Below, piece by piece: positions 26,002-32,287 of a stretch of DNA of 64,000 bases. Origin of the DNA: an uncultured Pelagibacteraceae bacterium (lineage in GTDB: Bacteria; Pseudomonadota; Alphaproteobacteria; Pelagibacterales; Pelagibacteraceae); the NCBI GenBank assembly GCA_902626725.1, contig CACOGI010000001.1:62001-126000 (forward strand), read 5' to 3'. The translations under genes and the position numbers were made by a program. Each line of letters starts with the position of its first letter. Position 1 is the first letter of the stretch. The notes below the pieces were generated by a model that did no database searches, was not told where the DNA came from, and was given only the letters and a program-made list of their open reading frames with translations.

Positions 26002-26075
26002 TGGTGCTCCCACCCTGTACTGACCAGGGAATTAGTCCTTACCAAGGACTTGTTATACCATTTAACTACAGGAGC
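26002..26075 (-). tRNA. tRNA-Thr (GGT), CCA encoded, atypical T-loop
   Basis: GCTCCTG TA GTTA-AATGGTA-TAAC A AGTCC-TTGGTAA-GGACT AATT CCCTG-GTCAGTA-CAGGG TGGGAGC ACCA. Confidence 0.85.
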
Positions 26076-29966: not shown

Positions 29967-30182
29967 TTGTCAAAGCAAGACTTACTTGAATTCAAAGGAA
30001 AAGTAACTGATCTATTGCCAAACGCTATGTTTAGAGTTGAGTTAGAGAATGGACACGTCGTTACAGCTCATACAGCGGGAAAATTGAGAAAAAATAGAAT
30101 TAGAGTATTGCAAGGTGATAATGTGACAGTAGAAATGACACCTTATGACCTTACAAAAGGCAGAATAATCTTTAGAGGTTAG
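29967..30182 (+). CDS. infA: Translation initiation factor IF-1 (TTG start)
   Basis: [64 protein letters not shown]. Confidence 0.97.
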
Positions 30183-30187
30183 AATTT

Positions 30188-30262
30188 GCCTCGGTAGCTC
30201 AGGAGTAGAGCAGAGCCCTGAAAAGGCTTGTGTCGGAGGTGCGAATCCTTCCCGAGGCACCA
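30188..30262 (+). tRNA. tRNA-Phe (GAA), CCA encoded, G at position 55
   Basis: GCCTCGG TA GCTC-AGGAGTA-GAGC ... CTGAAAA ... GGAGG-TGCGAAT-CCTTC CCGAGGC ACCA. Confidence 0.93.
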
Positions 30263-30337
30263 TCAAAACACCTTGAAATTCATTAAAAAGAAATTAACTT
30301 CTATAAATTATAAATAACAAAAGGACGATAAAATAAG

Positions 30338-30550
30338 ATGAGTACACTAAAGGGAACAGTAAAATGGTTCAATGGCAAGAAGGGATTCGGGTTTATTGAA
30401 AGAGAAGACAAAGAAAAGGATGCTTTCGTTCATGCAAGTGCAGTAAAAGCAGCTGGTATGAGATATTTAAATGAAGGCGATAAGCTAGAGTTTACTCTAG
30501 AAGATGGACCCAAAGGTCCATCAGCGGTTAATTTAAAAAAGATAGATTAA
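30338..30550 (+). CDS. cspA: Cold shock protein
   Basis: GTVKWFNGKKGFGFIEREDKEKDAFVHASAV. Confidence 0.95.
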   Translation: MSTLKGTVKWFNGKKGFGFIEREDKEKDAFVHASAVKAAGMRYLNEGDKLEFTLEDGPKGPSAVNLKKID

Positions 30551-30560
30551 ATTAAAATTT

Positions 30561-30600
30561 TAAAGGACGTTTTTTGATGAGATGAAAAACGTCCTTTTTT
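30561..30600 (+). terminator. Rho-independent terminator after cspA
   Basis: AAAGGACGTTTTT-tgatgagatg-AAAAACGTCCTTTTTT: long perfect stem with T tract. Confidence 0.9.
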
Positions 30601-30639
30601 AAGCTTGAATAATTATGATTTTTGTCTAAAAGAATTTTA

Positions 30640-30741
30640 ATGAAACAAAACAAGATCAAAAACATCTGTGATTTAGGTACTCTTAGAGCAACTCTGGGAG
30701 GAGCTGATAAAGGTGTGCATTCTCATTTCCATGCTGGCTAA
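30640..30741 (+). CDS. Candidate 33-aa small ORF with terminal HSHFH upstream of tRNA-His/hisS
   Basis: ATG..TAA: MKQNKIKNICDLGTLRATLGGADKGVHSHFHAG*; no clear Shine-Dalgarno. Confidence 0.3.
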   Translation: MKQNKIKNICDLGTLRATLGGADKGVHSHFHAG

Positions 30742-30811
30742 AGCTAGCAAATAATCGTTTATATTATAATTTTAAAACAACACAAAATAAGATAAAAACA
30801 AAAAAGGATAT

Positions 30812-30885
30812 GCCTTGATGGTGAAATAGTATCACGTCGGTTTGTGGATCCGAAGTCGTAGGAGCGTAACCTACTCAAGGTACCA
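30812..30885 (+). tRNA. tRNA-His (GTG), CCA encoded, A73 and no G-1
   Basis: GCCTTGA TG GTGA-AATAGTA-TCAC G TCGGT-TTGTGGA-TCCGA AGTC GTAGG-AGCGTAA-CCTAC TCAAGGT ACCA. Confidence 0.88.
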
Positions 30886-30889
30886 AAAA

Positions 30890-32287
30890 ATGAGTGAAAA
30901 AAATAAATTAATTCCTGGACTACCTCCAGGTTTCGAAGATAGATGGAATAAAAAATTACTTCTCAAAAAGAGACTATTAAAAGTCATTGAGAAAAATTTT
31001 TCAATGTATGGATTTGATCCATTAGAAACCCCATCATTTGAAATAAGTGAAAATATAGGTTCCTTTCTTACAGAGGATGATAGCAATCCTATGTCTGATG
31101 TTTTTTCTTTTAATGATGGTGAAAAAAATATTACTTTGAGATATGACTTGTCAAGTCCATTAGCTAGGTTTGTTGCTCAAAACAATCAACAGCTTCCCTC
31201 AACATATAAAAGATATGCTATACAAAATGTCTTTAGAAATGAAAAAGCTGGCAATGCTAGATATAGAGAGTTTACCCAAGCTGACTGTGATATCGTAGGA
31301 AATTTTAATCCTGCACAGGCTAATGCTGAACTATGTAATTTAATTGCAAATACACTATTAGACTGTGGTTTAAAAAAGGATCAGTTTATTATTAACATAA
31401 GCAATAGGAAAATTGTTCAAGGAATAATCGAAGATTTAAGGATTTCAAAGGATAAACAAATAAAAGTAATGAGAGCAATTGATAAACTAGATAAACCTGG
31501 TTTTGGATTTAAAGGTGTTGAAGAATTATTAAAAAAGGAAAGGAAAGATAAAAGTGGAGCTATTACAAAAGGGGCTAATTTAAATGATGATCAAGTAACA
31601 AAAATTTTAAATTTTCTAAAGATTAAAGATTTGAAAGAATTAAAGCAAAATTATAAAAATCCTATTACTCAAGAAGGAACCAAAGAATTGGAGCAACTTT
31701 TTGAAGTTTTAAGTTACAGTAGCAATTCTGACCAGATCAAAACTAATTTTACAATAGTAAGAGGTCTTGCTTATTATGATGGTTTTTGCGTTGAGACCAA
31801 CCTAAATTTTAAAGCAAAAAACAATAAAGGCAAAGAGGTTGATATTGGAAGCATTTGTTCAGGGGGTCAATATAATAAGTTAATCTCAAGGTTTAAGGGT
31901 GTTGATATCCCAGGTACAGGTATGAGCATTGGCGTTGACAGATTACTTTTTGTAATGATGCAACTAGACCAAATAGAAATTAAAGATCAGAAACCAGTGA
32001 TAGTTTGTGTGATGGAAGAAAAATACTTAAAAAATTATTATGAAATTTTGGAAACTTTAAGAAAAAATAATATTAATTCTGAAATTTTTTTAGACAGCAA
32101 AAAAAATCTAGGCAAACAATTAACATACGCTAATAAAAGGGAGTGTCCAGTTGCAGTAATTTGTGGAGAAAATGAATTTAAAGATAATAAAATTACATTA
32201 AAAAATCTCCAAGGTATTAAAGGTGAAAATAATCAAATCTCATTTTCAAAAGAAAATTTAATTAATGAAATCAAAAAATTTATCTGA
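30890..32287 (+). CDS. hisS: Histidyl-tRNA synthetase
   Basis: True start MSEKNKLIPGLPPGFED (the track start lies inside tRNA-His); LRYDLSSPLARFVAQN, FRNEKAGNARYREFTQADCDIVG, GLAYYDGFCVE. Confidence 0.95.
   Translation: MSEKNKLIPGLPPGFEDRWNKKLLLKKRLLKVIEKNFSMYGFDPLETPSFEISENIGSFLTEDDSNPMSDVFSFNDGEKNITLRYDLSSPLARFVAQNNQQLPSTYKRYAIQNVFRNEKAGNARYREFTQADCDIVGNFNPAQANAELCNLIANTLLDCGLKKDQFIINISNRKIVQGIIEDLRISKDKQIKVMRAIDKLDKPGFGFKGVEELLKKERKDKSGAITKGANLNDDQVTKILNFLKIKDLKELKQNYKNPITQEGTKELEQLFEVLSYSSNSDQIKTNFTIVRGLAYYDGFCVETNLNFKAKNNKGKEVDIGSICSGGQYNKLISRFKGVDIPGTGMSIGVDRLLFVMMQLDQIEIKDQKPVIVCVMEEKYLKNYYEILETLRKNNINSEIFLDSKKNLGKQLTYANKRECPVAVICGENEFKDNKITLKNLQGIKGENNQISFSKENLINEIKKFI

What the first reader, a model, noticed from the sequence alone, without database searches (positions are those of the whole stretch)
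30188..30885. Shared non-canonical tRNA elbow (A18/G55) in tRNA-Phe and tRNA-His
In tRNA-Phe the T-loop is TGCGAAT instead of TTCGAAT (G55) and the 7-nt D-loop AGGAGTA places A at position 18. In tRNA-His the T-loop is AGCGTAA (A54, G55, T58) and the D-loop AATAGTA again gives A18. The near-universal elbow contact is G18-Psi55, so both tRNAs have the same double substitution A18/G55. tRNA-His also seems to exchange the T54/A58 reverse-Hoogsteen pair for A54/T58. Paired changes at contacting positions look like coevolution rather than sequencing error. G55 also removes the TruB target uridine.
Basis: partly seen in the sequence, partly recalled or inferred. Interest (0 to 1): 0.75.

Follow-up and report, generated by a model that had tools for sequence, protein, structure and literature searches.

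The report
Alternative tRNA elbow in SAR11 bacteria
Ocean SAR11 bacteria build several of their indispensable transfer RNAs with a swapped contact at the elbow (A18 with G55 instead of the near-universal G18 with pseudouridine 55), a coupled change that recurs in several tRNAs, is also common in phage tRNAs, and occurs in a genus that has deleted the enzyme making pseudouridine 55.

Summary
The window (Pelagibacter, SAR11) has tRNA-Phe with A18/G55 and tRNA-His with A18/G55 plus A54/U58; G19-C56 is kept. In complete Pelagibacter genomes tRNA-Phe and tRNA-His are single-copy, so these are not spare pseudogenes. The same swap is in tRNA-Val(GAC) and, in relatives, tRNA-Thr(GGT). Of 120 distinct Pelagibacterales tRNAs, 92 are G18/U55, 28 A18/G55, none mixed. 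Pattern scans of 250 Pelagibacter genomes found no mixed state; 385 alphaproteobacteria and 399 Pseudomonadota gave no tRNA hit outside Pelagibacter. Near-twin loci carry canonical or alternative tRNA-His beside 97%-identical HisRS, so both forms should work.

Pelagibacter has cleanly deleted truB (Psi55 synthase) between rbfA and rpsO; but A18/G55 also occurs in TruB-bearing relatives, so the loss is associated, not causal. And the same elbow, with its 54/58 variants and a further covarying contact 16/59, is common in phage tRNAs (Acinetobacter phage Ac42, many IMG/VR contigs).

Most likely mechanism: A18 intercalates in the T-loop and forms a sheared pair with G55, as known for non-tRNA T-loops. 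Geometry, expression and modification remain untested.

The parts
30188..30262 (+). tRNA-Phe(GAA) with encoded CCA; alternative elbow A18/G55, canonical T54/A58 and G19/C56
30201..30207 (+). tRNA-Phe D-loop AGGAGTA; A18 at 30204, G19 at 30205
   Evidence: register fixed by AGTAGTA relatives
30240..30246 (+). tRNA-Phe T-loop TGCGAAT; G55 at 30241
30812..30885 (+). tRNA-His(GTG) with encoded CCA; A18/G55, A54/T58, T16/A59; T at -1 and A73 (no G-1)
30825..30831 (+). tRNA-His D-loop AATAGTA; T16 at 30827, A18 at 30828, G19 at 30829
30863..30869 (+). tRNA-His T-loop AGCGTAA; A54 30863, G55 30864, C56 30865, T58 30867, A59 30868
26002..26075 (-). tRNA-Thr(GGT), a further non-canonical T-loop: GTCAGTA = G54, U55, C56, A57, G58 with normal G18 G19
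30890..32287 (+). hisS (histidyl-tRNA synthetase) directly downstream of tRNA-His; near-identical HisRS occurs next to both tRNA-His forms in relatives
29967..30182 (+). infA (IF-1), immediately upstream of tRNA-Phe
   Evidence: sequence; name from own reading of the translation
30338..30550 (+). cold-shock-type protein gene between the two tRNAs
   Evidence: sequence; name from own reading

Best explanation
These are working tRNAs with an alternative elbow. Shown: positions 18 and 55 change together (G/U to A/G), G19-C56 stays, and 54/58 has three states (U/A, A/U, G/G). Inferred: A18 still intercalates between 57 and 58, as G18 normally does, but pairs with G55 through a sheared (trans sugar-edge/Hoogsteen) A.G contact while G55 makes the turn that U/Psi55 normally makes; A54/U58 and G54/G58 replace the U54-A58 pair that closes the loop. 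This is the rule already known for T-loops in riboswitches and other RNAs, here used inside essential tRNAs. The elbow needs no Psi55 and, in tRNA-His and tRNA-Val, no U54, so it is indifferent to TruB and TrmA-type enzymes. In SAR11 it arose by in-place double substitution in some tRNAs and spread at the tRNA-His locus by short allele replacement.
For: Covariation: 92/28/0 among 120 distinct tRNAs, Fisher p about 6e-28, not corrected for ancestry. No G18/G55 in 250 Pelagibacter genomes; all listed A18 tRNAs there have G55. Several isoacceptors and backbones: Phe (2 types), Val(GAC), Thr(GGT), His (4 backbones). Close pairs showing the double change: His L034 versus L108 (89% identical, swap at 18 and 55), His in G241 versus G091 (84%), Phe versus canonical L047 (79%). 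Function: sole Phe and His genes in G082, encoded CCA, stems compensated, tRNA-His next to hisS; L125/L101 versus L092 differ mainly around tRNA-His (about 65% identity in that 100-base bin against about 97% in most of the flanks) with 97% identical HisRS; elbow type changes at least 8 times on the hisS tree. Sheared A.G rule for T-loops with G at position 2 and an inserted A: PMC11363276. Same coupling in phage tRNAs.
Against: No structure, tRNA-seq, aminoacylation or modification data. On starred branches only four independent pairs per tRNA could be counted, too few for a sign test on its own. The sheared geometry and the alternative 54/58 pairs are inferred. Phage tRNAs show some A18/T55 cases; many of these, though not all, have an ambiguous AGG D-loop.
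Confidence: 0.82

Rival explanations
1. Loss of TruB relaxed selection on U55, and the A18/G55 tRNAs are a downstream, near-neutral result of losing elbow modification during genome streamlining.
For: TruB absent from every sampled genome of the window's genus, including complete ones; clean deletion between rbfA and rpsO. One complete genome also lacks detectable TrmA, TrmH and a TrmFO hit. TruB-less genera g460 and g461 mostly carry A18/G55 tRNA-Phe.
Against: A18/G55 occurs in TruB-bearing relatives: Val in genus g459, His in G241, Thr in G091. TruB-less g462 rarely matches the pattern. Most tRNAs of TruB-less cells keep U55. Relaxation alone does not predict strict coupling of 18 with 55.
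Confidence: 0.3
2. The alternative tRNAs were captured from phages and replaced the host genes.
For: The identical elbow sets (AATAGTA/AGCGTAA, AAAAGTA/AGCGTTA, GGCAGAA, TGCGAAT) are common in phage tRNAs; tRNA-His is exchanged as a short segment.
Against: No viral tRNA found is more than about 75% identical to a SAR11 alternative tRNA; blastn of tRNA-His and tRNA-Val against 50,697 phage records gave nothing; the exact tRNA-His arm is absent from IMG/VR; tRNA-Phe and some tRNA-His clearly derive from canonical SAR11 backbones.
Confidence: 0.12
3. Decaying or specialised non-translational tRNAs (pseudogenes, or tRNAs for a side role).
For: Conserved elbow bases are changed, and ARAGORN misses tRNA-His.
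Against: Only copies for Phe and His in a 99% complete genome; conserved over dozens of species with compensated stems and encoded CCA.
Confidence: 0.02

Closest known systems
Canonical tRNA elbow (G18-Psi55, G19-C56, T54-A58; reviewed in PMC4810234 and PMC7912444)
   Same: Cloverleaf, 7-nt T-loop, G19/C56 kept, purine at 57, residue 18 next to G19
   Different: 18/55 is A/G instead of G/Psi; 54/58 may be A/U or G/G; 7-nt D-loop common
T-loop motif of riboswitches and other RNAs with G at position 2 receiving an inserted adenosine (FMN riboswitch example in PMC11363276)
   Same: G at T-loop position 2 (=55) goes with an adenosine (=A18) supplied by another loop
   Different: Here it replaces the tRNA-specific contact in functional tRNAs; geometry untested
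Suppressor tRNAs selected from randomised D/T-loop libraries (Zagryadskaya, Doyon, Steinberg, 2003-2004; recalled from memory, not held in the library)
   Same: As recalled, G54-G58 and other replacements support function in E. coli
   Different: Those were laboratory selections; here the variants are natural, inherited and covarying
tRNA-Sec with a 16-59 contact (C16-C59, PMC7609411)
   Same: Positions 16 and 59 covary in the non-T54 elbow class, including C/C
   Different: tRNA-Sec keeps the canonical D/T-loop contacts and has a different body
Alphaproteobacterial tRNA-His without G-1, with A73 (PMC3937112)
   Same: Window tRNA-His has T at -1 and A73
   Different: That known trait concerns the acceptor end, not the elbow; the paper's main text does not mention T-loop or elbow

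Membership tests
Functional elongator tRNA (RF00005) | Cloverleaf at or above gathering score | tested here: met
   62.6 and 50.6 bits against 29
Functional elongator tRNA (RF00005) | Sole gene for its codon set, encoded CCA | tested here: met
   one tRNA-Phe and one tRNA-His in complete relative G082, both alternative
Canonical tRNA elbow | G18 with U/Psi55 | tested here: not met
   A18/G55 in both window tRNAs
Canonical tRNA elbow | G19 with C56 | tested here: met
   all 120 distinct tRNAs
Canonical tRNA elbow | T54 with A58 | tested here: not met
   met in tRNA-Phe, not in tRNA-His (A54/T58)
T-loop motif with G at position 2 and inserted A | Sequence rule: G at position 2 goes with an inserted A | tested here: met
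   28 of 28 G55 tRNAs have A18; rule from PMC11363276
T-loop motif with G at position 2 and inserted A | Trans sugar-edge/Hoogsteen geometry and intercalation | not testable with these tools
   no RNA 3D modelling available
Phage-derived tRNA | Closer to phage tRNAs than to host tRNAs over the whole body | tested here: inconclusive
   Most Phe and the L034 and G241 His are as close or closer to SAR11 canonical genes; nothing viral above about 75%; window-type His and Val are about equally distant from both
Alphaproteobacterial G-1-less tRNA-His | No G-1, A73 | tested here: met

The most novel reading that the evidence does not exclude
There is a second, self-consistent tRNA elbow architecture (A18.G55, 54/58 as A/U or G/G, a 16/59 contact, A60, G19-C56 kept) that works without Psi55, T54 or Gm18. 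Phages use it widely for their own tRNAs, possibly to be independent of host modification enzymes or of elbow-reading nucleases, and SAR11 has installed it in essential chromosomal tRNAs while discarding TruB.
Probability: 0.35. Interest if true: 0.85.

Novelty: new variant of a known kind. Interest (0 to 1): 0.7.

Why it matters
G18-Psi55 is treated as near-universal and TruB as almost universal in bacteria. SAR11, among the most abundant cells on Earth, breaks both in indispensable tRNAs, and does so in natural matched pairs: near-identical genomes with either elbow beside the same synthetase. That makes it testable what the G18-Psi55 contact and Psi55 are for. It also gives gene finders and tRNA models a class they misread (ARAGORN misses tRNA-His here), and suggests a reason why phage tRNAs look odd.

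Tried and rejected
Pseudogene and sequencing-error readings: rejected by conservation, single copy and compensated stems. TruB loss as the cause: rejected as a sufficient or necessary cause, because TruB-bearing relatives carry the swap. Phage capture of tRNA-Phe: not supported. Two viral-contig scans used wrong gap lengths; their zero results are void; two searches were run with corrected gaps. Literature searches for 'A18-G55' and 'purine trap' found nothing in the open library; the Steinberg-laboratory paper tried is not held, so prior description of A18-G55 in selected or natural tRNAs cannot be excluded. Absence of TrmFO rests on tblastn with E. coli MnmG only.

Full report
Observation. 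tRNA-Phe (30188-30262) has D-loop AGGAGTA and T-loop TGCGAAT; tRNA-His (30812-30885) has D-loop AATAGTA and T-loop AGCGTAA. Rfam's tRNA model accepts both; ARAGORN finds only tRNA-Phe. The neighbourhood is hisD, infA, tRNA-Phe, a cold-shock gene, tRNA-His, hisS, hisZ, hisG. The window is from Pelagibacter: its closest named relatives by HisRS are Pelagibacteraceae single-cell genomes.

More tRNAs are involved. In the window's own genome (66% complete, 19 tRNAs found) tRNA-Val(GAC) has exactly the loops of tRNA-His, and tRNA-Thr(GGT) (26002-26075, minus strand) has T-loop GTCAGTA, i.e. G54/G58 with a normal G18/U55. Two nearly complete relatives were read in full: G082 has A18/G55 in Phe, His and Val(GAC); G012 in Phe, Val(GAC) and Thr(GGT), while its tRNA-His is canonical. 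Each has one tRNA-Phe and one tRNA-His. All other tRNAs are G18/U55.

Covariation. Among 120 distinct short-variable-loop tRNAs from the Pelagibacterales loci held, 92 are G18/T55, 28 A18/G55 and none mixed; G19/C56 is invariant; 54/58 is T/A, A/T or G/G. Position 18 was assigned from the D-loop alone, so the result is not circular. Genome-wide patterns for the commonest D-stem gave no G18/G55 in 250 Pelagibacter genomes, while every listed A18 tRNA had G55 (211 of 250 genomes have at least one; the listing is truncated). The A18/G55 pattern in 385 alphaproteobacteria hit tRNAs only in Pelagibacter, and A18 with any base 55 in 399 Pseudomonadota hit tRNAs only in the window genome. These patterns cover one D-stem class only, so they undercount: the G091 tRNA-Thr and G241 tRNA-His were found by reading tRNA sets.

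How it arose. Some changes look like in-place double substitutions: tRNA-His of L034 against canonical L108 (89% identical), tRNA-His of G241 against G091 (84%), tRNA-Phe against canonical L047 (79%). At the tRNA-His locus whole alleles are also exchanged: on a hisS tree the elbow type changes at least 8 times, and L125 or L101 against L092 are about 97% identical over most of both sides with a dip to about 65% at tRNA-His. The HisRS of these genomes is 97% identical, so one synthetase type evidently charges both forms (inference).

TruB. TIGR00431 and PF01509 find TruB in sister genera and in the other family of the order, but in no sampled genome of the window's genus; the tally by genus also leaves g460, g461 and g462 without it; all control genomes are positive. 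In complete G012 the nusA-infB-rbfA-rpsO-pnp order is intact and rpsO starts 8 bases after the rbfA stop, whereas G241 and E. coli have truB there. G012 also has no TrmA hit; its three SpoU-family methylases are RlmB, a TrmJ-type protein and TrmL, not TrmH; and the only MnmG/TrmFO-type hit is MnmG. So the elbow is probably unmodified at 18, 54 and 55 in Pelagibacter (inference). The loss is not the cause of the swap, since TruB-bearing g459, G241 and G091 have A18/G55 tRNAs.

Phages. In 1044 distinct tRNAs from these contigs (chosen for the feature, so not a frequency estimate) 54/58 leaves T/A mostly when 18/55 is A/G, and in the class without T54 positions 16 and 59 covary (T/A 75, A/T 36, C/C 10, T/T 14). 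The window's tRNA-His fits this class (T16, A59). The phage tRNAs are not close relatives of the SAR11 ones, so the shared elbow looks like a common solution, though transfer of the His, Val and Thr types cannot be excluded.

Mechanism. In the normal elbow residue 18 intercalates in the T-loop and touches Psi55 (PMC4810234). T-loops in other RNAs accept an inserted adenosine that pairs trans sugar-edge/Hoogsteen with a guanosine at T-loop position 2 (PMC11363276). Position 2 is residue 55, so A18/G55 is what that rule predicts. The 54/58 variants would replace the trans U54-A58 pair; G54-G58 is recalled from suppressor-tRNA selections (memory, not checked). No structure was modelled.

Verdict. 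Real, conserved, coupled and functional in all likelihood. The chemistry is a known T-loop variant; its use in essential cellular tRNAs, its coupling across isoacceptors, the missing TruB and the link to phage tRNAs appear unreported in the literature that could be searched, which is only the open-licence part.

Noticed in passing
window 30640-30741 (+), hairpin from 30733: Small ORF MKQNKIKNICDLGTLRATLGGADKGVHSHFHAG* between the cold-shock gene and tRNA-His; 56 of 80 Pelagibacter loci have a similar ORF with an HxHxH motif near its end, nearly all ending HAG* or HAS*, and its stop overlaps the hairpin GCTGGCTAAAGCTAGC. Candidate his leader (attenuator) peptide for tRNA-His-hisS-hisZ-hisG; present with both elbow types.
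   Followed up: partly
window 26002-26075 (-): tRNA-Thr(GGT) has T-loop GTCAGTA (G54/G58) with normal G18/U55, a separate departure from the T54-A58 pair.
   Followed up: partly
G012 contig 1, 1216400-1217100 (complete Pelagibacter relative): truB cleanly deleted between rbfA and rpsO; genus-wide absence of TruB.
   Followed up: yes
L050, L058, L074: Three Pelagibacter loci carry an unusual tRNA-Phe(GAA) body, e.g. GGGCCTTTGGTATAGCTGGTGCGTAC..., near hisS instead of either common type.
   Followed up: no
L190 (G012 contig 1, 1131481-1131553): tRNA-Thr(GGT) with A18/G55 whose 3' end reads ACCG rather than ACCA.
   Followed up: no
IMG/VR viral contigs L373-L604: In phage tRNAs lacking T54, positions 16 and 59 covary (U/A, A/U, C/C), suggesting a further D-loop/T-loop contact like that of tRNA-Sec.
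   Followed up: partly
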